Of a stretch of 37,624 nucleotides of DNA, positions 2 to 37,624 are shown one piece after another. The notes beneath the pieces were generated by a model, which was given only the letters and a program-made list of their open reading frames with translations, was not told the origin of the DNA and ran no database searches. Source of the DNA: a virus; IMG/VR virus record IMGVR_UViG_3300023440_000012, positions 1 through 37,624 of that record; one strand, given 5' to 3'. The translations under genes were made by a program, and so were the position numbers. Positions within the stretch are counted from its first letter, which is position 1. Every line of letters begins with the position of its first letter.

Positions 2-844
2 GATATATCTGATATTGGGGATCGTATTATAGTAGCAGTCCCCAATAATCATACTGAAGAAGCTATTACTATACCTCAACCTGGTAATATCTGCATATAC
101 TTACGTACTGGAACCACCTGGACGTTAGAGAGTAGTATGGGCACACCCCCATCAGTTTTACATTATGAGGATTTTGCACAGAAAGTCAGAATGTGTGGGA
201 GTGGGGATAGAGTTATAGTAGGCTCTCTATATGATGATCCTCAAGTAATAGATCATGAAGGGGCATATATTTATTCACGCACTGGTACAGTATGGACCTT
301 AGAGCAATCACTATTTCCTAACATGCTACCAAAAAATGATCTTATAACACTTACTTATGCTTTTGATCTAAATGCCACTAGAGTCGCTATTGCTTCTATT
401 GATGGTGGTAGTAACGGTGAGGTATATATCTACTTACGTACCGGTACTACATGGACGTTAGAGACTACACTTTCATATGGATCTTCCGTTAATATTAATT
501 TTGGCTCCTCTGTCGATATGACTGATGATGGTACTACTTTGATAGTTGGGGCTAGTAAAACCTCACCAACTAGTATAGCTTTTATATATACTAGAGTTGG
601 TATTGTATGGTCCCTAAGTGGGATTGTATATGCTAGCGTTCCAAAGGGGATTGCATTTGGTGAAACCGTTAGGATTGATAAGAATGCTACACTAGCATGT
701 ATTTCGGCACCCTTAGATAGTTTTGGTAACCCCAACTCTGGATCCGTATATGTTGGCACAATACAACCCCCTAGCATACTTAGAATAAGTAATAGTGGCT
801 ATAACCCAATTTCAGAATTACAGCAATTTCTTAGATTAAAATAA
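2..844 (+). CDS. FG-GAP-like repeat protein, C-terminal part (putative tail fibre/adhesin), truncated by window edge
   Basis: The reading frame is open to the first base of the window, so the gene starts upstream; the ATG at 137 is internal. The visible 280 residues hold four copies of a roughly 50-residue unit whose best-conserved strand is a Y-x-R-T-G-T-x-W-x-L-E motif, followed by segments of the type FGSSV...VG. This pattern is that of FG-GAP/beta-propeller-like repeats, which in large phages occur in fibre or adhesin proteins at the virion surface. The C-terminus (ILRIS...GY...LQQFLRL) recurs in the minus-strand gene at the other end of the window, so the two are paralogues. Role in host attachment is inferred from the repeat type; the N-terminal attachment domain is not in view. 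A strong hairpin follows the stop codon. Confidence 0.7.
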   Translation, partial: DISDIGDRIIVAVPNNHTEEAITIPQPGNICIYLRTGTTWTLESSMGTPPSVLHYEDFAQKVRMCGSGDRVIVGSLYDDPQVIDHEGAYIYSRTGTVWTLEQSLFPNMLPKNDLITLTYAFDLNATRVAIASIDGGSNGEVYIYLRTGTTWTLETTLSYGSSVNINFGSSVDMTDDGTTLIVGASKTSPTSIAFIYTRVGIVWSLSGIVYASVPKGIAFGETVRIDKNATLACISAPLDSFGNPNSGSVYVGTIQPPSILRISNSGYNPISELQQFLRLK

Positions 845-1224: not shown

Positions 1225-1238
1225 AATTGAGGTGGGTT

Positions 1239-1646
1239 ATGAAAGTTTTTTTAGGGGGTACCTGTAATAATTCAAAATGGAGATCTGATCTGATTCCATT
1301 ATTAGAAATAGATTACTTCAATCCAATCGTAGAGGATTGGAGTGTTGGAGATATGGATAGGGAGATTTTAGAACGTAAGGTTTGTGACTATCTGTTATAC
1401 GTCATTACCCCTAGGATGTTAGGATCGTATTCTATAGCTGAAGTTGTTGACGATAGTAATAAAAGACCCGATCATACTATATTTTGCATCCTAGATTCAG
1501 ATTCAGATCCTAGATCTGGATTCGCTATGAGTTTCGATGTACCTATCAAGAAGTCATTAGATGCTGTAGCTAAATTAGTAGCTTCCAATGGAGCTAAAGT
1601 CTTTTCTAATTTAAAATCAGTTGCGGAATACTTAAATGCTACATAA
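1239..1646 (+). CDS. Nucleoside 2-deoxyribosyltransferase-like protein
   Basis: The product begins with the strand-loop FLGGTCNNSKWR and continues with YFNPIVEDW, a central acidic helix, LYVITPRMLGSYSIAEVVDDS and a conserved AT-rich-phage type C-terminus. This is the pattern of nucleoside 2-deoxyribosyltransferase-like proteins (Rossmann-like fold, short family of about 130-150 residues) that are common in phages. Family members cleave or exchange the N-glycosidic bond of deoxynucleosides or related nucleotides; the actual substrate here is not known. The ATG at 1239 is chosen over an in-frame TTG at 1227 because GAGGTG (1229-1234) is well placed in front of it. The last 11 bases overlap the next gene, suggesting translational coupling. 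Confidence 0.75.
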   Translation: MKVFLGGTCNNSKWRSDLIPLLEIDYFNPIVEDWSVGDMDREILERKVCDYLLYVITPRMLGSYSIAEVVDDSNKRPDHTIFCILDSDSDPRSGFAMSFDVPIKKSLDAVAKLVASNGAKVFSNLKSVAEYLNAT

Positions 1647-14422: not shown

Positions 14423-14467
14423 ACCCATAGACTCCTGATTAGGTTAGGGTCTACTTTGGAGTCACGT

Positions 14468-17400
14468 ATGAACAATCCATGTTTTGATAATGAGGGTAAC
14501 TTCGTTCATATCCCAGTTGAGGATTTGAACCGAACTACTTTCCAGTTAGAAATATTACCGCAGAATGCTAAGAATATACCACCTAGTTATGAGTTTTATG
14601 ATAGCGTCCATCCTCACATACCCAATATCCTCGTGTCAAGCGACCTAGCTAACTTAGGGAAGCTTATGGCTATATCGATAGGTAATGAGTTAAATAGGGT
14701 CAGATATCACGGTTTTGATGGCACTAACCTATACTACATGGTAACCAGTAACAACTTTCATAACGATCATTATCTGTGGATATTTACTACAGCTTTTGAT
14801 GATCTATTCTTAAAAGTAGAGTCTGGTACGGTGCATGATGCAGCCTCAGATGTTAGGGTAGCTGCTAGAAAGGCTATTCAATATTATAAAGCATTTCTGG
14901 TTGTACATACCCCTAGCATTATTCGATATCTAGATCCAGATGTAGTTAGGTCTGCATTTGTTCTAGCTATCGAATATGCTAAAATAAGAGAGAGTATGTT
15001 CATTAAGCGACCTATGATGATATCTGGGGAGTATTCATTTACAGATAAAACATCCCATCGATTAGATTATACCAATAGTAGTATACCAGTTTCAGATAGA
15101 TGTGCTATGATTTACGAAAGGTATTATGAGGACCTTGGACTTACTGTACCCGAAGAAAAATATATTATAAATAATACAATCGATAAAACTGAAAAGGGAA
15201 TACGTCATTTTACTAGACTCTTAAATAAGTATAAAGACGCTTATAACGAGTTTCAGAGTATGAATGTATATATGCCTGATGAGCAGATACGGGATGGGTA
15301 TCCTGACATTTACTCACAAGCAGAATGGTATTTAGCAACATATGCCAAAATAGAAGAACTACAATCCAAGGCTGATGCCTCTAAACGTAAAAATAACATA
15401 AACAATCATAATAGGAGAAATAACATGGGAAATAAATCTTGGAATAACCCACCATCCAATTCTACAAACCCTGCTGATATAGCAGCTAAAAGATCAATGC
15501 AGAATCCAGCATACCAGAATAATGTAATGCAACAACCGTACCCCCAGGGACAATATCCACAACAACCGTACCCTCAAGGTCAATACCCGCAACCACCTCA
15601 AGGTCAATATCCACAACAACCTCAGGGACAATATCCACAACAACAGTACCCTCAAGGTCAATATCCGCAACCACCTCAAGGACAATATCCGTATAGACCT
15701 CAGGGACAATATCCACAACAACAGTACCCTCAAGGTCAATATCCGCAACCACCTCAAGGTCAATATCCACAACAACCTCAAGGACAATATCCGTATAGAC
15801 CTCAGGGTCAATATCCGCAACCACCTCAAGGACAGTATCCACAACAACCGTACCCTCAAGGACAATATCCGCAACCACCTCAAGGACAATATCCACAACA
15901 ACCGTACCCTCAAGGACAATACCCACAAAATGATCAGAGAGTTGGTGGTAACCCATTTAATCAACCTGGAGTAAACGATAGTCCAAATAAACCTAGAGCT
16001 GTTACGCGATACGATGCAATAAGACCGGGACCTTTTGAAGATAATATGGTACGTGAAAGAACTAACCGTGATAGTCATGTTAGTCCGCCGATTCAAAGGA
16101 TGCCTATAGTCGATAGGGTTAAAAATCGTGATGAAAATATAAGTATGTCAGATCCTGATATGCATAAACCTACACATTTAGATAACCCTGAAGATATCGC
16201 TGCTTATTGGGAAGGTATTAACGATGTTACTATGGAGTCTATTGTTAAGTTCACCATAGAGCATGATATAAAAGATTCAGGGATACCGCAATACCTCATC
16301 AATAAGTTCCACCCAGATGTGAGGGTCAGAAACTTAAATACCGTACAGAATGACTTCACCTTAAAGAATGGTAATAGTCAGACTGTAACTAAAGACGAAT
16401 CTTTAGATGAGCATGGCTTTCCAGTAAACAGTACTATATCTGATGATGGATTTCAAATAGAATTAGGAGATACAGATGATAATATTCGTGACAATAAAAG
16501 AACTCCTATTCCGGAAGAATCTAGAATAGAATATCCAATTCATAATAAACTATGGGAGAAACCAATGAATAGAGATCAACATAAAGTAACCACACTAGGG
16601 GGTAAGATAGTAGTGAATCCACCAACTATTAAAGAAGAAATAAGAGCCGATGTAGAAAGTATTAATAAAGCTAGTAGTAAGTGTGTTAATACTAAGGTAG
16701 GGTTAATCCCTATGGTTAAAACATCCTTACGTGATGCAGTTGTGGACGCTGAGATTTCTACAATATCTAAAAGCGCTGGTTTAGAAATAGAGCCTTTATA
16801 TAACATAGAGTTAGGGGTATTAAGTGAGCCTATAATAACACCCCATGATGTTAGTTCAGAAATGGCTAAGATTCGCACGGCTACCAACTTCAACCATTTA
16901 GGTGAGATTCTACAAGAGTTGGGTGAAACTACAGTAGAGCGGGATGGTGAAAAATCTAAATCAATACTTAAACTAGCAGTTACGGTTAATACCAGATTGA
17001 CTATTGCAGTTAATAACTTTATCAAGAAGAACTTAAGATGTAAGTTATCAATCGACGATTTCTGTGAAGACGCTACTGAATTATATTATTTCCTTAAACG
17101 AGAATGGGGTGTTATATCAGCTGAGGCTTATAAAATCTTTGAGAAAGAAGTGATGACTGGTATTAGAACTAAGTTATGTGATGCTACTATCAAAGCTCTT
17201 AAGTCTTCAATTTCGATGTGTAAATCCCACTTTGTTACATTCATATCAACTACTTTTGTAGTTACTACGACTAAGTTTAACGTACATGATTTAAACATGA
17301 GTATAAAGGATAATGAGTTCACAGTAACTAAGGACTCGTCACCTAGGTTGTTTAACATTCTAGAACATGCTGCTACAGTGGTGGAAGCTGAAGAATTTGC

Positions 17401-17497
17401 AGCAGCCTCTAATTACCTTGTAACGAATGATGGTGTTAAATATAGAGTTTTTGAGTCGTACTTTGAAATTCCAGAGTATGTGTTAGTATTAATTTAA
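14468..17497 (+). CDS. Large unknown protein with P/Q/Y/G low-complexity repeat tract
   Basis: From ATG 14468 (GGAG at 14458-14461) the product is 1009 residues; an in-frame TTG at 14456 lies within the ribosome site and is rejected. Residues 1-310 look like a folded domain. A basic Asn-rich linker follows (about 300-345), then a tract of 15 GQYP units (about 355-487) made only of P, Q, Y and G with two YRP interruptions. Residues 490-680 are hydrophilic and probably disordered, and 690-1009 form a second folded, helical region. The tract resembles prion-like or collagen-like flexible linkers. No family is recognised. It is the last gene of a three-gene unit, followed by two hairpins. Confidence 0.7.
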   Translation: MNNPCFDNEGNFVHIPVEDLNRTTFQLEILPQNAKNIPPSYEFYDSVHPHIPNILVSSDLANLGKLMAISIGNELNRVRYHGFDGTNLYYMVTSNNFHNDHYLWIFTTAFDDLFLKVESGTVHDAASDVRVAARKAIQYYKAFLVVHTPSIIRYLDPDVVRSAFVLAIEYAKIRESMFIKRPMMISGEYSFTDKTSHRLDYTNSSIPVSDRCAMIYERYYEDLGLTVPEEKYIINNTIDKTEKGIRHFTRLLNKYKDAYNEFQSMNVYMPDEQIRDGYPDIYSQAEWYLATYAKIEELQSKADASKRKNNINNHNRRNNMGNKSWNNPPSNSTNPADIAAKRSMQNPAYQNNVMQQPYPQGQYPQQPYPQGQYPQPPQGQYPQQPQGQYPQQQYPQGQYPQPPQGQYPYRPQGQYPQQQYPQGQYPQPPQGQYPQQPQGQYPYRPQGQYPQPPQGQYPQQPYPQGQYPQPPQGQYPQQPYPQGQYPQNDQRVGGNPFNQPGVNDSPNKPRAVTRYDAIRPGPFEDNMVRERTNRDSHVSPPIQRMPIVDRVKNRDENISMSDPDMHKPTHLDNPEDIAAYWEGINDVTMESIVKFTIEHDIKDSGIPQYLINKFHPDVRVRNLNTVQNDFTLKNGNSQTVTKDESLDEHGFPVNSTISDDGFQIELGDTDDNIRDNKRTPIPEESRIEYPIHNKLWEKPMNRDQHKVTTLGGKIVVNPPTIKEEIRADVESINKASSKCVNTKVGLIPMVKTSLRDAVVDAEISTISKSAGLEIEPLYNIELGVLSEPIITPHDVSSEMAKIRTATNFNHLGEILQELGETTVERDGEKSKSILKLAVTVNTRLTIAVNNFIKKNLRCKLSIDDFCEDATELYYFLKREWGVISAEAYKIFEKEVMTGIRTKLCDATIKALKSSISMCKSHFVTFISTTFVVTTTKFNVHDLNMSIKDNEFTVTKDSSPRLFNILEHAATVVEAEEFAAASNYLVTNDGVKYRVFESYFEIPEYVLVLI
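15532..15928 (+). repeat. In-frame tandem repeat, 24- and 30-bp units encoding GQYPQxxQ / GQYPQQxYPQ
   Basis: About 400 bp of direct repeats built on a CAAGGACAATATCC core, occurring 15 times in two unit lengths (8 or 10 codons) that alternate irregularly. Silent changes (GGT/GGA, CCG/CCA) form higher-order blocks, suggesting growth by unequal recombination. Absence of stops on the opposite strand within it is a by-product of the repeat. Confidence 0.9.
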
Positions 17498-29334: not shown

Positions 29335-31797
29335 ATGAAGATAATATCAATAGAATTAGTGGGGTATAAAAGACTAGCTCTTAATAACATTAACCGTATA
29401 AAACTGACACCCGAGAGTAAGATTCAGTTTATTCTAGGTACTAACGGTTCTGGTAAATCGTCGTTATTGAAAGAACTATCACCTTTACCAGCTATCGCAA
29501 ACGAATTTTCCAAAGGTGGGTATAAGGAGATTATTATAGAGCATAGATCCTCTACCTTTATCTTACTGAGTGATTTTAGATCTAATAAAAGCTATAGTTT
29601 CATTAAAGATGGTCGTGAGATTAACCCTAGTAGTACCATAACTGTATATAAAGAACTTGTAGAATCCGAGTTTAATATAACACAGGATATCCATAACCTA
29701 ATGATAGGATCTACCGGTTTTCATAGTATGTCTGTTATGGAAAGACGTAATTGGTTTACTAAAATATGTGATAGCGATTACACTTATGCCATACGTTTTT
29801 ATAACAAATTGAAAGAAAGACATCGGGATCTTTTAGGAGGTACTAAACTATCACGAGTACGACTAGTTCAAGAATCCGATAAGTTACTTTCTGAAGAAGA
29901 TACCGTAAAACTTAAGAGTAAGCTTGATGGTTTAAATTTACTACGTCAGGATTTACTATCTCTCAAAACTACAATTCCAGATAAGTCTTCTATATTATCA
30001 ACGATTTCTAGTAGTTATGATAGCATAATGTCTCTTGTAGATACGACTACCACATTAATGAATGATGTCAAATTGGGGGAGGTTGATAATCTAAAACTTA
30101 ACCTCTTAGTTGTGCAATTAGAAATTCAGAGGTTAAAGGGGGTATCAGAAATCATATATGAGGAACTTAAAGAGAATAGGATCATACAAGATATCTTATC
30201 TAAAGGCAATATTGATGGCTCTGGGGATTTAGATAAGAATATAGATGAGTTATCTAGTAGTATAAATACTCTAGAAAAAGGATTATATCTGAATCTACCA
30301 ATAACAGATTCTGAAGCCATTAATGTGATAGATACAATACGCCCAGATCTAATCAATATTTGCTCTATAATACCAGTTAATATAAATAGTGATTTTACTA
30401 GAGAGCGACAAATCGATCTGGATGAAAAGTTAACTCTATTAAAGATAGAATATAGGAAGTTAGATGGTGAGCAAAATAGAGATACAAAACTAAAAAGTGA
30501 ACTAGAACATCTTAAAATCCATAATCAAGTAGACTGTCCCAAATGTAAATTTAGATGGGCTATGGGGTATGATGACTCCAAGTATAACCATATAATATCT
30601 AGTATAACCACCCGTGAAAGTAGACTTGTTACGATATCCAAAGATATAACGGCTATAACAAATACCTTAAAAGAACTATCTGACTATTTTGATAATCTTA
30701 GGAGTCTTAAGCAGATAATGTCATTATATTCTATATTGAAACCCTACTGGAATTATGTTATTAATAAAGAGTATGTGTTTAAATCACCATCTAGGATAGT
30801 TGATGATTTAGTTATACTTAGGGATGATCTTCTTATAATGCTTAAAATGAATAAATTAACTGATGAATTAAAGAGTGTTAAGCAGCTTAAATGTAAACTA
30901 TTAGAAGATAATATTACCAGTGTTAGAAATATTAACCAGCAAGTAGATACCTTAGAGAGTTCGCTACATAGGAACAATAACGCTATCTCAGAATCACAAG
31001 TTAAATACAACGAGTTAGAAAACCAACTAGCCAACACTATATCACTAGAGGAAAGCATTTCAAGACTTACAAGATTAGCTAAATCTACATATCGTAATGA
31101 GCGTAAACTTAAAGTTATTAAAACTCAAGAAACCCTTAATGATCTTATAAATGAAGTAACCGTAGCCATATCCCAATTAGAACTGAAACTCTCTAAGGTT
31201 GATAGTCAGATAGCAATAGTAAAGAGTATGACTGATAATCTATTAGAATTAGAGAATGAGGAAAAATTAATAAAGCTAGCGGTTAGGGAATTATCACCAT
31301 CTGAAGGTCTGATAGCTAAAGGACTTAATGGGTTCATCAATTTCTTTATTTATGAACTTAATCAATTCATAAAATCCATATGGCTTTATCCTTTGGAACT
31401 CATACCGTCGGATGGTGATAGTGTAGATTTAGATTTTAAATTTAATGTAAAAATTAATGACGATCACATCATTAATGACGTTAAACTAGGTTCATCAGCC
31501 ATGAAAGAAATCATAGACTTAGCATTTAGAGTGGTGAGTGCAAAGTATTTAAATCTAGGTAACGCACCATTATTTCTAGATGAATTTGGAGTTAAACTAG
31601 ATAAGTCGCATAGAGATAGTGCCTTTTACGCTATTAACGAGATATTAACACATTCAGAGTTTACTCAAGTATTTATGATATCACACTATAGTTCTAACTA
31701 TGGTAGTTTTAAAAATGCTGATATAACTATATTAAGTGAATCTAATATAGAGATTCCTAGAGATCTATCGTTTAATAAAAAGGTGGAGATATCATGA
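29335..31797 (+). CDS. SbcC/Rad50-like recombination ATPase (T4 gp46 type)
   Basis: An 820-residue SMC-like protein: Walker A GTNGSGKSSLL near residues 35-45, a long coiled coil, a zinc-hook CPKC at about 401-404 in the middle, a second coiled coil, then FLDEFGVKLD (Walker B, about 745) and MISHYSS near the C-terminus. With an SbcD/gp47 partner nuclease, not in this window, it would process double-strand breaks and stalled forks or degrade host DNA. The ATG at 29335 is preferred to the adjacent ATG 29332 because AGGAGG (29324-29329) is five bases away. The upstream TATACAATATAAATGAG resembles the promoter motif loosely. Its stop overlaps the next start (ATGA). Confidence 0.85.
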   Translation: MKIISIELVGYKRLALNNINRIKLTPESKIQFILGTNGSGKSSLLKELSPLPAIANEFSKGGYKEIIIEHRSSTFILLSDFRSNKSYSFIKDGREINPSSTITVYKELVESEFNITQDIHNLMIGSTGFHSMSVMERRNWFTKICDSDYTYAIRFYNKLKERHRDLLGGTKLSRVRLVQESDKLLSEEDTVKLKSKLDGLNLLRQDLLSLKTTIPDKSSILSTISSSYDSIMSLVDTTTTLMNDVKLGEVDNLKLNLLVVQLEIQRLKGVSEIIYEELKENRIIQDILSKGNIDGSGDLDKNIDELSSSINTLEKGLYLNLPITDSEAINVIDTIRPDLINICSIIPVNINSDFTRERQIDLDEKLTLLKIEYRKLDGEQNRDTKLKSELEHLKIHNQVDCPKCKFRWAMGYDDSKYNHIISSITTRESRLVTISKDITAITNTLKELSDYFDNLRSLKQIMSLYSILKPYWNYVINKEYVFKSPSRIVDDLVILRDDLLIMLKMNKLTDELKSVKQLKCKLLEDNITSVRNINQQVDTLESSLHRNNNAISESQVKYNELENQLANTISLEESISRLTRLAKSTYRNERKLKVIKTQETLNDLINEVTVAISQLELKLSKVDSQIAIVKSMTDNLLELENEEKLIKLAVRELSPSEGLIAKGLNGFINFFIYELNQFIKSIWLYPLELIPSDGDSVDLDFKFNVKINDDHIINDVKLGSSAMKEIIDLAFRVVSAKYLNLGNAPLFLDEFGVKLDKSHRDSAFYAINEILTHSEFTQVFMISHYSSNYGSFKNADITILSESNIEIPRDLSFNKKVEIS

Positions 31798-32738
31798 TAA
31801 TACTTAACAAACACCATAAATCTACTGATAATGCGATTTACATAGGTAGGGGTTCTGTATTAGGAAACCCCTTTGTGATAGGGGTACATGGCTCTAGAAC
31901 CGAGGTTATAGCTATGTATGATAACTACATACATGACCAAATACTTTTGGGTAATAGTAGTATCGTTGAATACATAAAGACCCTAGAATCTAATAGTAGA
32001 CTACTTTGCTACTGCTGCCCCAATCAATGTCATGGTAAGGTTATTGAAAAGTATTGGAAAAAATTAAATAATAACACGTTTAATGGGAAGGTGCTTATAC
32101 CATCTAATGAAGGGGTAGACCATATCAACATATCATCAAAAGCTAATTCAGAATTAGGCACTCTATTATCAGGACATCTTAATAAGATCATATCAAACAA
32201 ATCAACTAAGAATCATAAGGATTATTTTAAAAATCTATACACTAATCTATTTAGAAGTATATCTAAAGATACTATTACTAGTGATTTGTTATGTAATAAT
32301 ATATTACCATTAGAGTTATACGGCGATTCTTATATAAAAGAAAGTAGGTGGTTTACATATACACTATATAGCATCAAGATGAAGTTGACTAATTCACTTA
32401 ATGTAGCAGTAGTTGGCTGTAGGACTATAGCCGATATTGATTTGATATCCCAGTCTATAAATGAAGCGCCCTTCAATGTTGGTAGGATATTATCAGGTGG
32501 TGCTAAAGGAGCTGATACGTTAGGTGAGAAATATGCCTTAGAGCATAACCTACCTATAATATACTTTTATCCATATTGGGAAGAATTAGGTAAGAGAGCT
32601 GGTATGCAGCGTAATAGTGAGATGATTAAATTCGCAGATGGTGTTATTGCGGTATGGGATGGGATATCTGTTGGGACTAGAAATGCTATAGAAACAACCA
32701 AAGCTAACCGTATACCACTTTACCTAAAGATGGTCTGA
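31794..32738 (+). CDS. DUF4326 - SLOG (DUF2493/YspA-like) fusion protein
   Basis: A 314-residue protein with two recognisable parts. Residues 1-90 carry the DUF4326 signature: YIGRGSVLGNPFVIG, SRTEVIAMYDNY and LLCYCCPNQCHG. Residues 203-314 are an SLOG-type Rossmann nucleotide-binding domain (DUF2493/YspA): VAVVGCRT, LSGGAKGADTLGEKYA, FYPYWEELGKRAGMQRN and VIAVWDGISVGTRNAI. The middle (about 108-198) begins INISSKANSELGTLLS, which recalls the opening of NADAR-like phage proteins, but the rest does not follow that family clearly. SLOG domains bind nucleotides or ADP-ribose-like ligands in nucleotide metabolism and immune signalling; the actual job here is unknown. It overlaps the SbcC-like gene by four bases. 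Confidence 0.78.
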   Translation: MIILNKHHKSTDNAIYIGRGSVLGNPFVIGVHGSRTEVIAMYDNYIHDQILLGNSSIVEYIKTLESNSRLLCYCCPNQCHGKVIEKYWKKLNNNTFNGKVLIPSNEGVDHINISSKANSELGTLLSGHLNKIISNKSTKNHKDYFKNLYTNLFRSISKDTITSDLLCNNILPLELYGDSYIKESRWFTYTLYSIKMKLTNSLNVAVVGCRTIADIDLISQSINEAPFNVGRILSGGAKGADTLGEKYALEHNLPIIYFYPYWEELGKRAGMQRNSEMIKFADGVIAVWDGISVGTRNAIETTKANRIPLYLKMV

Positions 32739-32873: not shown

Positions 32874-33488
32874 TTATATATGCTTAAGAAGTATGTATCC
32901 TTCCAATTCTGATATTTTAGCAAGTGCTTCGGTTAGCGTGTTTTGAAGCCTCATAACCCTAGAACTATCTGTAACATCACCACTGGTTAACTGTAAACGT
33001 GTTGCAGTATGCTGTGTATGCTTTGCTTCAGTTATTAATATGGGCTTGGAGGTCTCTATACTTTTTATAGCTGGAATAACCCCTAATCTACTAACTATAA
33101 GATCTTTTATAGCAGTATGAATATGTGTTAAATCTAGATCCGCTGGTAAGAGTGGTAAGCTAACCCCGATTACCCCTGTGCGATATATAACCCCATTAGG
33201 ATCCGGCAGTTTAGCGATATAAACCACTGGCACATAAATCCAATGACCCAAATCTGACTGTAGTGAAATGATCTCTATATCATTAACTACCTGCTGTTGA
33301 TATTCAGTAGGAGGTATTCCATTAGCATCATATATTGTACTCTTTATATCCTCATTGTTACTTATATAATCAGATATTGTACGGACAGCTTTACAGGTAT
33401 ACTGCTCTTCAGGATTAATCAGGTTATTGAATGGAGGTAATAAATCATAAAAGCCCGAGGCTCCTATATGTGGAACTATGTTATTCAT
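32874..33488 (-). CDS. Virion structural protein, giant-phage type
   Basis: A 204-residue protein. The run YTCKAVRTISDYI, then SLQSDLGHWIYVPVVYIAKLPDPNG, GVSLPLLPADLDL and a C-terminal heptad-like helix (LQNTLTEALAKISELEGYI) matches a recurrent giant-phage structural protein from memory; its place in the virion is not established. AGGA lies seven bases before the ATG. It is a single-gene minus-strand unit facing the gene-poor stretch 33489-34228. Confidence 0.6.
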   Translation of the reverse strand: MNNIVPHIGASGFYDLLPPFNNLINPEEQYTCKAVRTISDYISNNEDIKSTIYDANGIPPTEYQQQVVNDIEIISLQSDLGHWIYVPVVYIAKLPDPNGVIYRTGVIGVSLPLLPADLDLTHIHTAIKDLIVSRLGVIPAIKSIETSKPILITEAKHTQHTATRLQLTSGDVTDSSRVMRLQNTLTEALAKISELEGYILLKHI

Positions 33489-33624
33489 TTAACATTCCTA
33501 TATTTTTTTAACTATGGGTGAATATGTGATATAATATATACACGTCATATTATAAACCAGTGAATAATGTTTTAATATCAATAGTAATCAGTAGTTCATA
33601 CACTATGATCATTATTATACTATC

Positions 33625-33644
33625 ATATATACTTTATATGATAG
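33625..33644 (+). promoter_or_regulatory. Promoter-like motif (third copy), inside a hairpin
   Basis: ATATATACTTTATATGATAG matches the motif at 2391 and 11452 at 18 and 17 of 20 positions. Here its right half forms a perfect 10-bp stem with CTATCATATA at 33620-33629 (arms to 33644), instead of a downstream 8-base-loop hairpin. It lies 75 bases before the pseudogene at 33719, the same kind of distance as the other copies have to their genes, so it probably was that gene's promoter. Bases 33489-33619 show only AT-rich sequence with no assignable feature. Confidence 0.5.
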
Positions 33645-33669
33645 TACCAATTTTAGTTAGACATTACAC

Positions 33670-33691
33670 CTACATATCATGTGATATGTAG
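33670..33691. promoter_or_regulatory. Small palindrome in the leader of the pseudogene
   Basis: CTACATATCA and TGATATGTAG form a perfect 10-bp inverted repeat around a two-base TG centre. It would lie in the 5' leader of a transcript from the motif at 33625 and could be a hairpin or a binding site. No function can be assigned. Confidence 0.35.
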
Positions 33692-33718
33692 TTTACCTAT
33701 AATTGTTAGAAGAAATAT

Positions 33719-33967
33719 ATGATATACACCATTACTAGACATGCAGCTGTATCGTCTTATTAGTTAATCATGCAGATCAACAATTCTGTGATAGTCTGAA
33801 AGTTAAGGATGTATGTATAGGTACGTTACCCATGCATCTAGCATATAGAGTCTGTGAGCTATCAGGAGGAACTATTTGACATTTTCAGACTAATGGTTTC
33901 CTCCGATCTCAGGAGTGTTGAATTAACTGTTGATCAGATGGTTGAGTTAAATGCTCAAATTAACTAG
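33719..33967 (+). pseudogene. Frameshifted Csx16-like (VVA1548-family) gene remnant
   Basis: No single frame here exceeds about 60 codons, but three frames read in order give one family-like sequence. From ATG 33719 the first gives MIYTITRHAAVSSY, stopping at 33761-33763. The second, from about 33757, gives NHADQQFCDSLKVKD then VCIGTLPMHLAYRVCELSGG, stopping at 33877-33879. The third, from 33875, gives FDIFRLMVSSDLRSVEL then TVDQMVELNAQIN, stopping at 33965-33967. The order TRH at the start, IG-LPMHLA in the middle and DLRSVELTVDQM at the end is that of Csx16-like proteins (about 90-100 residues), which I recall also in giant phages. The part between TRHAAV and NHADQ is also about ten residues short. 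Two frame breaks and a deletion point to a decayed gene; sequencing error would have to strike twice. Confidence 0.6.
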
Positions 33968-34126
33968 TTTAAAGTTGATACAACTACATGTCATAGCTCA
34001 ACATGCTAATGGATTAGGTTAGGTGGTCTGAAAAATTATAATGAGTGAGTGGGTGTATAACCGGGTAAGGGAGGTAGGATATATAAGTCATATGTATATA
34101 CGAGAGTATCGTAAAGGTTGATAACA
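33968..34126 (+). other. Non-coding or decayed sequence after the Csx16-like remnant
   Basis: This stretch has stops in every frame except for a 26-codon frame at 34041-34121 (MSEWVYNRVREVGYISHMYI...), without a ribosome site, which may be the tail of another lost gene. No tRNA-like fold or protein match was seen. It runs directly into a strong terminator at 34127, implying the whole stretch from about 33640 is still transcribed. Confidence 0.4.
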
Positions 34127-34158
34127 TTATAGTACAACGGATATCCGTTGTACTATAA
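34127..34158 (+). terminator. Intrinsic terminator closing the gene-poor stretch
   Basis: A perfect 16-bp inverted repeat (core GTACAACGGAT/ATCCGTTGTAC) followed by CTATCTTTCTTTTTTT. It is 70 bases before the next gene, so it ends a transcript that comes from the gene-poor region. Confidence 0.85.
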
Positions 34159-34228
34159 CTATCTTTCTTTTTTTAATATGTAACGTTATGTAATGAAGTA
34201 TTAACCGCAACTAAAAGGATCAATTTAA

Positions 34229-34711
34229 ATGACTATAGAAAATAGTTTGATTATATCAATAAACACATCTTATATTAGTAATATAAGTCTAAATCCTAGA
34301 GTTCCATCGCATGATATTAGCTATAATAACAGCCTCGATATTGACGTTGAGTTAGTTAAAAAGTTCATATGTAATAGCTTATCAGAAACGGTAGTGCTTA
34401 GTCACTACGACTTTGAGACTCCGGGGTTCATTGAGATTTTAGACCAAGATAAAAATAGTTGTAGCTTTTTTTTCGTAGATGCTAATGGTGATATCCTAAT
34501 CTGTGAAGGATGGATCGACGACTCTGATGATATTGATATGTTTTATTATGAGTTTTATTATGTTGGGACGTTAAATGGTCTTACTACCATAGTAGAGTTA
34601 TTACAACTACCTATATATGATATTCTAGGGGGTAAAATATGTACCGTCATAGGACATCCAGATATCGTTAAACTATTTAAAGCTACATTCCAAGATATGG
34701 ACCCTTTATGA
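34229..34711 (+). CDS. Hypothetical acidic protein upstream of RNase H
   Basis: A 160-residue acidic protein with a strand-rich middle (FFFVDANGDILICEGWIDDSDDIDMFYYEFYYV) and a helical end. An AGGA ribosome site precedes the ATG. It overlaps the RNase H start by four bases (ATGA) and so is made with it. No family recognised; Asp-rich segments could bind metal or mimic DNA, but no motif backs this. Confidence 0.6.
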   Translation: MTIENSLIISINTSYISNISLNPRVPSHDISYNNSLDIDVELVKKFICNSLSETVVLSHYDFETPGFIEILDQDKNSCSFFFVDANGDILICEGWIDDSDDIDMFYYEFYYVGTLNGLTTIVELLQLPIYDILGGKICTVIGHPDIVKLFKATFQDMDPL

Positions 34712-36144
34712 GTACGCTAATATGCTATACCGATGGTGGTGCCAACCCTAATCCGGGCTACTATGGAGCTGGGGTGCATGGTTATATATTTGAGGAGGAT
34801 ATCGATAAACCTATTTATATAAAAGGTTGGGCTATTACTAATATCGGATATTATAATAAAAGAGAGGTGGTCATGGATGAAGCTACTATGACCTTAGTTA
34901 AACCTACTCAGTACATAGACGCCGTTATACCGTTAGGTAATAATGGAACTAATAACCAAGCTGAACTAGTAGGTGTTATAGAAGCTATTAAGCTAGCTAT
35001 ACAATATGATGTTAAATCACTATGTATATATACTGATAGTGATATTACCTGTAAAGGTGTTAATGAATGGCTACCCATGTGGAAAAAGACCAACTTTGTT
35101 AAGCGGGATGGTGTTGAAGTTAGTAATAAATTGCTGTGGTTAGAATTAGACTTGTTAATAACTAAAATAAAGGGTGTAGTGGAGTTTAAAATATCTTGGA
35201 TTAAAGCACATGACGGTCATCTAGGTAATGAAAAGGCTGATGAGCTAGCAACCATAGCTATTAACTACAGTATGGCTGGAACATTAGAGAGGGTTATCAA
35301 ACTTAGTGACATTACTAAGTACTGGAACCCCACTATTGTGCGTAATCCATTCTTCTCGCATAGGAGGTTATATTTTAATAGTAGGGGTGATAATGCATCT
35401 AAAGGCACCTATTATTTAGCTGACAATGATGCTGAAGATACTCTTATAGGTAAACGTAAACCGGAAGCTAGCTATAGCGTTATAAGACTTAGTGAGCCTG
35501 ATGCTACAATAGGGTTACTTTTAAATAAGCAGGCTATGGTGACTGATTCTAGTGGGTATAACGGCATCTTTATGGTTAAGCTAGAGAGTTTGTTCAATAA
35601 GAACGTCTGTAGACCTCTAGCTCTATATAAAGGTCTGATATTTAATACCTTTAGACAGAGTTATAATCTAATGTTTGCCAATAAATCCCCTATGACTATA
35701 GAGCTCAAACCGGTACTATTATCACTTAGGGCTATAGATAACTTTAACCTACTAGAAGAAAGATTAGATGCTTACTTAACTATAAGTAATAGTGATAGCG
35801 ATAGAGGTAATGTAGGTAGTGAGTATATGGAAATACAAGACATAACAGATACGTTCTACACTGATGCAAATAAACTTAAAGGATCTTTAGATAGTAGTGT
35901 TAAACATATTAAGATTGGAGTAAGGTTTAAAAGTGTTAGTTATAAAATTACGATTTGTCTAGGTATAGATCTACCCAATAGGAATGCTCTTAAAAAGCTA
36001 GAGGGTAAGGATACAACTTTAAAACTTGTAATGGTCTCATCATCTGATAGTAATTTTACATATTGTATTATTGTAAATAATGATACGGGTGTCGGTTTAT
36101 TTAGTAACTATTTTGCAGATAGGGTATTCATTAAAAGGGTGTGA
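34708..36144 (+). CDS. RNase HI with a long C-terminal extension
   Basis: The N-terminal 190 of 478 residues are a complete RNase HI: D9 in YTDGGANPNPG, E86 in NNQAELVG, D110 in IYTDSD, H168 and D178 in WIKAHDGHLGNEKADELA, the full D-E-D-D set plus the His loop. It would remove RNA from RNA:DNA hybrids such as Okazaki primers or R-loops. An insertion (about residues 31-78) enlarges the first beta hairpin. Residues 190-478 are a separate strand-rich region with no recognised fold that begins with IVRNPFFSHRRLYFNS; it might bind nucleic acid or a replication partner. Most RNase HI enzymes are about 155 residues. Confidence 0.85.
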   Translation: MSTLICYTDGGANPNPGYYGAGVHGYIFEEDIDKPIYIKGWAITNIGYYNKREVVMDEATMTLVKPTQYIDAVIPLGNNGTNNQAELVGVIEAIKLAIQYDVKSLCIYTDSDITCKGVNEWLPMWKKTNFVKRDGVEVSNKLLWLELDLLITKIKGVVEFKISWIKAHDGHLGNEKADELATIAINYSMAGTLERVIKLSDITKYWNPTIVRNPFFSHRRLYFNSRGDNASKGTYYLADNDAEDTLIGKRKPEASYSVIRLSEPDATIGLLLNKQAMVTDSSGYNGIFMVKLESLFNKNVCRPLALYKGLIFNTFRQSYNLMFANKSPMTIELKPVLLSLRAIDNFNLLEERLDAYLTISNSDSDRGNVGSEYMEIQDITDTFYTDANKLKGSLDSSVKHIKIGVRFKSVSYKITICLGIDLPNRNALKKLEGKDTTLKLVMVSSSDSNFTYCIIVNNDTGVGLFSNYFADRVFIKRV

Positions 36145-37104: not shown

Positions 37105-37624
37105 TTAAATTACTCTTAAGAAAGGTTGGATGTTATTGGTGGATGTATAGCCTGTTTCATTTATATTGAGTATTTTACGCATAGTGGCATTATAAGTAAA
37201 TACAGATCCTGCACGCATATAATTGTAACTATCTCTTATACAACCTACTGCTATCATAAGTCCAGATGTGGAAATGGAAACTGAAGATCCAAAAAAATCA
37301 TTAACCATTGGGGATGGTTTATCTATAGTTGCATTTAATACCCAGGTGGTGCCAGTTCTTACATATAGGTAAATTCCACCAACGCCACCAATACCATCCT
37401 TGGACTTGTTTTGAACTCCTATCACCAGTTTACCACCAGTTGAATCAATAGCAATAGATGTGCCAAATTTATCACTCAATACTGGTGTAGGGTTATTGAT
37501 AGTAGTTTCTAGTGCCCATGTAACACCAGTCCGTAGATATACATAAACCGACCCAGCATCAACGGCATTAGTATCATCCATAGGGACTCCTACTACAAGT
37601 CTACCACTAGCTGAATCAATAGCA
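37105..37624 (-). CDS. FG-GAP-like repeat protein, C-terminal part (putative tail fibre/adhesin), truncated by window edge
   Basis: The frame is open to the last base of the window, so the gene starts beyond it; the ATG at 37581 is internal. The 172 visible residues hold three copies of the unit with Y-x-R-T-G-x-T-W-x-L-E/N and segments FGTSIAIDSTGGKLVIGV and FGSSVSISTSG, FG-GAP-like in pattern. Its end (KILNINETGY...IQPFLRVI) parallels the end of the plus-strand gene at 2-844. A role as a surface adhesin or fibre is inferred from the repeats. It is followed within two bases by the 282-residue gene. Confidence 0.7.
   Translation of the reverse strand, partial: AIDSASGRLVVGVPMDDTNAVDAGSVYVYLRTGVTWALETTINNPTPVLSDKFGTSIAIDSTGGKLVIGVQNKSKDGIGGVGGIYLYVRTGTTWVLNATIDKPSPMVNDFFGSSVSISTSGLMIAVGCIRDSYNYMRAGSVFTYNATMRKILNINETGYTSTNNIQPFLRVI

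What the first reader, a model, noticed from the sequence alone, without database searches (positions are those of the whole stretch)
33719..33967. Decayed Csx16-like gene in the one large gap of the window
Reading three frames in succession yields TRHAAV, then IGTLPMHLA, then DLRSVELTVDQM, the ordered blocks of the Csx16/VVA1548 family, broken by two frameshifts and a short deletion. Csx16 belongs to type III CRISPR loci and has been linked to degrading the cyclic-oligoadenylate signal. A phage copy would therefore be a candidate counter-defence gene, here apparently lost. The flanking promoter motif and terminator look intact, so the remnant may still be transcribed, or the gene may be expressed by frameshifting.
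Basis: partly seen in the sequence, partly recalled or inferred. Interest (0 to 1): 0.85.

Follow-up and report, generated by a model that had tools for sequence, protein, structure and literature searches.

The report
Broken Csx16 gene in jumbo phage
A giant bacterial virus related to phiKZ carries the wreck of a gene for Csx16, an enzyme known to destroy the alarm molecule of type III CRISPR immunity, which suggests that its ancestors once had this counter-defence and lost it; the finding is real but modest, because the gene is dead.

Summary
In the window's only large non-coding gap (33489-34228, 740 bases; the next largest is 290), two same-strand open pieces in different frames match the Csx16 family (PF09652) and nothing else in Pfam, in family order; a third, short piece carries the N-terminal RH motif. 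Of 2490 six-frame open pieces in the window these three score highest against a profile I built from 76 Csx16 proteins. A frameshift-tolerant alignment of the gap scores 55 bits, against 17.9 at most in 300 shuffles and 18.5 in the best other stretch of the window.
The gene is broken: at least two frame changes, a net loss of about 31 bases, and perhaps a late nonsense codon. Nine of ten residues invariant in an intact reference set remain, so loss is probably recent. The other genes are intact under the standard code, which argues against sequencing error.
The contig is a phiKZ-like jumbo phage; several of its closest relatives encode the phage-nucleus shell protein. About 100 related phages and contigs contain no Csx16. 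Public phage records hold it only in two methanogen viruses.
Most likely this is a lost accessory gene that once degraded cA4 to blunt type III CRISPR. Expression by frameshifting is very unlikely.

The parts
33719..33967 (+). Csx16 relic as a whole; ATG to the TAG that ends the last piece
   Evidence: Frameshift-tolerant profile score 54.7 for 33719-33964, against max 17.9 in 300 shuffles of the gap
33719..33763 (+). N-terminal piece MIYTITRHAAVSSY then TAG; holds the RH motif
   Evidence: Profile 3-12, 4.5 bits, third best of 2490 pieces
33763..33864 (+). Core piece with IGTLPMHLAYRVC, in a second frame
   Evidence: PF09652 only, E 0.0053; PADLOC Csx16 9.1e-5; tblastn up to 70% identity over 20 aa, best E 1.6e-5
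33872..33964 (+). C-terminal piece with DLRSVELTVDQMVELNAQI, in the first frame again
   Evidence: PF09652 only, E 0.12; PADLOC Csx16 only, E 0.019; profile 59-88, 14.5 bits
33968..33986 (+). Possible remaining C-terminus beyond the TAG (inconclusive)
   Evidence: Best frameshift-tolerant alignment reaches profile position 97 here, but gains only 0.4 bit net of the stop penalty
34127..34158 (+). Intrinsic-terminator-like hairpin downstream of the relic, T-rich tail to about 34176
   Evidence: Perfect 16-base arms; terminator scan; similar perfect hairpins sit in most other large gaps of the window
32874..33488 (-). Conserved left neighbour, PHIKZ161-like protein (phrog_3241), divergent from the relic
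   Evidence: phrog_3241 E 2.5e-41; 42-43% identity in the closest relatives
34229..34711 (+). 160-aa orphan gene between relic and RNase H
   Evidence: No PHROG or Pfam match
34708..36144 (+). Conserved right neighbour, phiKZ-type RNase H
   Evidence: phrog_3265 E 3.4e-96

Best explanation
This is a probably recently dead pseudogene of a Csx16 ring nuclease, carried as a stand-alone accessory gene with its own terminator in a variable slot between two conserved genes of a phiKZ-like jumbo phage. When intact, the roughly 95-residue protein would have bound cyclic tetra-adenylate (cA4), the second messenger made by Cas10 of type III CRISPR when it detects phage RNA, and cut it to linear products. 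Host effectors such as Csx1 or Can1/2 would then have stayed off and the phage transcripts would have been tolerated. Shown here: family identity, position, the lesions, and the absence from the relatives searched. Inferred: cA4 cleavage (from a tested homologue), the anti-CRISPR role, and loss by relaxed selection, for example after a change to hosts without cA4-signalling type III systems.
For: Family identity far above chance with pieces kept apart and with frameshift-tolerant scoring. Nine of the ten residues invariant in a seven-member Csx16 alignment are kept: R and H of RH, H28, G/L/P of GTLP, and R, E, L of RGxEL, whose G is now S. Phage on both sides with conserved neighbours KZ161-like and RNase H. 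The slot is variable: relatives hold a ~440-aa gene and a small gene there, the window holds the relic and an orphan. Other genes intact, 93% coding, standard stops 29 TAA, 5 TAG, 4 TGA. Csx16 is a confirmed cA4-specific ring nuclease and viral ring nucleases serve as anti-CRISPRs (PMC12409355). Seven of 11 relatives tested encode the nuclear shell protein, and nucleus-forming phages evade DNA-targeting CRISPR but stay exposed to type III (review PMC13282480).
Against: No intact orthologue at this locus was found in any relative, so an intact ancestral phage gene is inferred. One contig, no reads: local assembly error cannot be fully excluded. The N-terminal block is weak on its own. The phage may have acquired an already broken copy. 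No type III host is known for this phage.
Confidence: 0.7

Rival explanations
1. The gene is intact in the real phage and the breaks are sequencing or assembly errors, or a mixture of strains.
For: Error-rich contigs exist in the same collection: in G026 the RNase H gene lies in four pieces. Nine of ten invariant residues are kept.
Against: The other genes of the window are full length against their families where tested, so two or more frame changes plus a loss of about 31 bases within 250 bases would be strongly clustered. A net loss of that size is not a typical base-calling error.
Confidence: 0.08
2. The gene is expressed through programmed frameshifting.
For: Conserved residues remain in all pieces.
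Against: At least two frame changes would be needed, in-frame stops lie between pieces, and about 10 residues are missing between blocks 1 and 2. No relative shows such an arrangement.
Confidence: 0.01
3. The relic is Csx16, but its ancestor in the phage was not an anti-CRISPR: it had another nucleotide-related role, or was an already dead passenger taken from a host type III locus.
For: In cells Csx16 normally sits in type III loci, e.g. Aeromonas and Allochromatium plasmids. No intact jumbo-phage orthologue was found.
Against: The relic has single-gene layout with its own terminator and no other CRISPR remnant or repeat beside it, and known viral ring nucleases act as anti-CRISPRs (PMC12409355).
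Confidence: 0.2
4. Chance resemblance in AT-rich non-coding DNA.
For: Single pieces fall below the curated Pfam cut-off.
Against: Scores lie far outside shuffles, other tiles of the window and 62,783 pieces of related phage DNA, whose best is 9.3 bits.
Confidence: 0.001

Closest known systems
Csx16 (PF09652, TIGR02620 cas_VVA1548), cA4-specific ring nuclease
   Same: Ordered blocks RH, H, IGTLPxxLA, RxxELT; 9 of 10 invariant residues; length of the region
   Different: Frame broken twice or more, about 10 residues lost, RG changed to RS; lies in a phage, not in a type III locus
Csx16 of Methanobacterium viruses Drs3 and PhiF3
   Same: Viral, stand-alone Csx16 gene
   Different: Those are single full-length coding sequences in small viruses of archaea; the relic is in a bacterial jumbo phage
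AcrIII-1 (viral Crn2 family)
   Same: Presumed job: a phage protein that destroys cA4
   Different: Different protein family; it is the common viral ring nuclease (36 genomes against 2 with Csx16, PMC12409355)

Membership tests
Csx16 / PF09652 | Match to the family profile | tested here: met
   Two pieces match only PF09652 in Pfam, in order; profile chain 42.5 against 9.8 in shuffles; frameshift-tolerant 55.1 against 17.9
Csx16 / PF09652 | Score over the curated cut-off (25 bits Pfam; 46.35 bits TIGR02620) | tested here: not met
   15.2-17.4 bits for the best single piece in Pfam, 13.3 in TIGR02620; the gene is in pieces, so it is filed as a relic, not as a working member
Csx16 / PF09652 | Residues invariant across intact members | tested here: met
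   9 of 10 kept; G of RGxEL is S
Csx16 / PF09652 | One open reading frame of about 90-105 residues | tested here: not met
   Three pieces in two frames, stops between them
Csx16 / PF09652 | Place in a type III CRISPR locus | tested here: not met
   Flanks are phiKZ-like phage genes; no direct repeats in the gap
Csx16 / PF09652 | cA4 cleavage | not testable with these tools
   Known for a tested homologue (PMC12409355); this copy is broken
phiKZ-like jumbo phages (Chimalliviridae) | phiKZ-type core genes and order | tested here: met
   Major head protein, virion structural protein, helicase, polymerase, RNase H and KZ161-like families; KZ161-like to RNase H order shared with relatives
phiKZ-like jumbo phages (Chimalliviridae) | Nuclear shell protein (chimallin) | tested here: inconclusive
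   Not tested in the window, which is a 37.6-kb fragment; found in 7 of 11 relatives, including near ones G007, G037 and G038

The most novel reading that the evidence does not exclude
Some nucleus-forming jumbo phages carry Csx16 as a real anti-type III weapon that covers the RNA-level gap left by the nucleus, and gain and lose it quickly with host type III content; this relic is a snapshot of such a loss and the first trace of Csx16 in a bacteriophage in the collections searched.
Probability: 0.45. Interest if true: 0.6.

Novelty: new member of a known kind. Interest (0 to 1): 0.42.

Why it matters
Nucleus-forming phages hide their DNA but export their RNA, which leaves RNA-targeting systems such as type III CRISPR effective against them (review PMC13282480). 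A ring nuclease would be a logical answer, yet no Csx16 over the cut-off was found in about 100 related phages and contigs. A dead copy shows that at least one lineage acquired the gene, points to a testable gap in known jumbo-phage counter-defence, and shows that such genes can be missed because annotation skips pseudogenes.

Tried and rejected
Exact-pattern searches for close sisters with the RNase H and KZ161-like proteins found none; alignments of the capsid and RNase H families then gave 60 and 80 loci. The DNA of the gap has no match in phage records. Two weak PF09652 hits in relatives (G042, E 0.0067; G074, E 0.044) cover only the N-terminal part of the profile or lie in frames without the IGTLP core, and are taken as chance. 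Rfam hits near the gap are all below gathering scores and sit mostly on the two terminator-like hairpins. No second relic was found in the rest of the gap. An alternative genetic code was rejected: genes end with standard stops and are full length where compared. Csx16 alignment A2 was too diverse for a collection scan; A4 worked. Drawing relatives of the window by taxonomy is not possible for a virus record.

Full report
WHERE IT LIES. The window is a 37,624-base record of the IMG/VR virus collection. Its genes are those of a phiKZ-like jumbo phage: major head protein phrog_3231, virion structural protein phrog_3004, polymerase phrog_2943, DnaB-like helicase phrog_3213, SbcC, RNase H phrog_3265 and a KZ161-like protein phrog_3241. 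By head protein the nearest named phage is Burkholderia phage FLC9 at 43.5% identity; the nearest contigs reach 65%. Coding density is 93%, and the 740-base gap 33489-34228 is far the largest; the next is 290 bases.

THE OBSERVATION. I tested the pieces apart, without joining or mending them. Pfam: the middle piece matches PF09652 only (E 0.0053), and the C-terminal piece matches PF09652 only (E 0.12), at profile 25-52 and 61-85. PADLOC: Csx16-bearing models only, E 9.1e-5 and 0.019. TIGR02620 sees only the middle piece, weakly, at 13.3 bits, level with an unrelated model.

STATISTICS. I collected Csx16 proteins from plasmids, viruses and 75 genome loci and built a profile from 76 of them. Among 2490 six-frame open pieces of the window, the three pieces of the relic rank first, second and third, on one strand, in profile order and within 255 bases. 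Their chain scores 42.5, against 9.8 at most in 100 dinucleotide shuffles. A frameshift-tolerant alignment of the gap scores 55.1 bits; 300 shuffles give 11.9 +/- 1.6 with a maximum of 17.9, and the best other 740-base tile of the window gives 18.5. With much harsher penalties it still scores 42.4. As a biological control, 62,783 open pieces from related phage loci reach 9.3 bits at most. tblastn of single Csx16 proteins against the raw window reaches E 1.6e-5, and the second-best hit has 70% identity over 20 residues of the IGTLP core.

HOW IT IS BROKEN. The N-terminal and C-terminal pieces share one frame and the core piece lies in another, so at least two frame changes exist, with stops between. 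Only about 11 bases stand where the profile needs 14 residues between blocks 1 and 2, a net loss of about 31 bases. A short stretch YLTFSD in the third frame, next to the second break, also resembles the family and may mean a third frame change (inference). Homology beyond the TAG at 33965 is suggestive but gains only 0.4 bit. Nine of the ten residues invariant in the seven-member alignment are kept, which suggests recent loss. The other genes are intact, which speaks against general sequencing error; contig G026 shows what an error-rich record looks like.

THE LOCUS IN RELATIVES. In the relatives examined, the KZ161-like gene and RNase H flank a gene of about 440 residues and a small gene, usually of about 90-170 residues. 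In the window these are absent from the slot, which holds the relic and an orphan of 160 residues. A perfect hairpin with a T-rich tail ends the relic's unit, like the hairpins in most other large gaps. This is the layout of a single accessory gene. A promoter could not be shown.

DISTRIBUTION. PF09652 was sought in 100 records of related contigs and phages (50 in each of two searches); none reaches the cut-off and two weak hits look like chance. Many of these records are fragments, so absence is not proof. In 50,697 phage records only the methanogen viruses Drs3 and PhiF3 hold Csx16. In IMG/VR two successful scans found one further contig, IMGVR_UViG_3300033149_003399, with an intact gene whose closest match among the records compared is on a plasmid of an uncultured archaeon, 59.6% identity. 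These scans use short motifs and miss divergent or broken copies.

FUNCTION. Csx16 is a cA4-specific ring nuclease, and of 28,114 phage genomes searched by others two encode it, against 36 with AcrIII-1 (PMC12409355). Nucleus-forming phages resist DNA-targeting CRISPR but remain open to type III (review PMC13282480). Relatives of the window's phage encode the nuclear shell protein. A Csx16 in this lineage would thus fit a counter-defence role, but that role is inferred, and the present copy cannot be expected to work.

VERDICT. Observation confirmed; interpretation supported in its core, not for frameshift expression or the promoter. My confidence that this is a Csx16 relic in a phage is about 0.97; the 0.7 given to the best explanation also covers pseudogene status and the inferred counter-defence role of the ancestor. 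A relic of a known family in a new kind of carrier.

Noticed in passing
window 31794-32738 (+): DUF4326 domain fused to a YspA-type SLOG domain, 1 kb from the relic; the other viral Csx16 contig (L089, 405-1265) also encodes a DUF4326 protein within 9 kb of its Csx16. Possibly coincidence.
   Followed up: partly
window 34229-34711 (+): 160-residue orphan gene without any PHROG or Pfam match, in the slot where relatives carry other genes.
   Followed up: partly
window 1227-1646 (+): Nucleoside 2-deoxyribosyltransferase-like protein (PF15891) in the phage.
   Followed up: no
window 14456-17497 (+): Large protein with a long run of PQGQYPQ-type repeats.
   Followed up: no
window 2-844 (+) and 37105-37623 (-): Both ends of the contig encode related repeat proteins (VYIYLRTGTTW motifs), so the assembly may have ended in repeated genes.
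   Followed up: no
G026 89000-95500 (L263): A jumbo-phage contig with the RNase H gene in four pieces and the neighbouring gene also split; looks like an error-rich record.
   Followed up: partly
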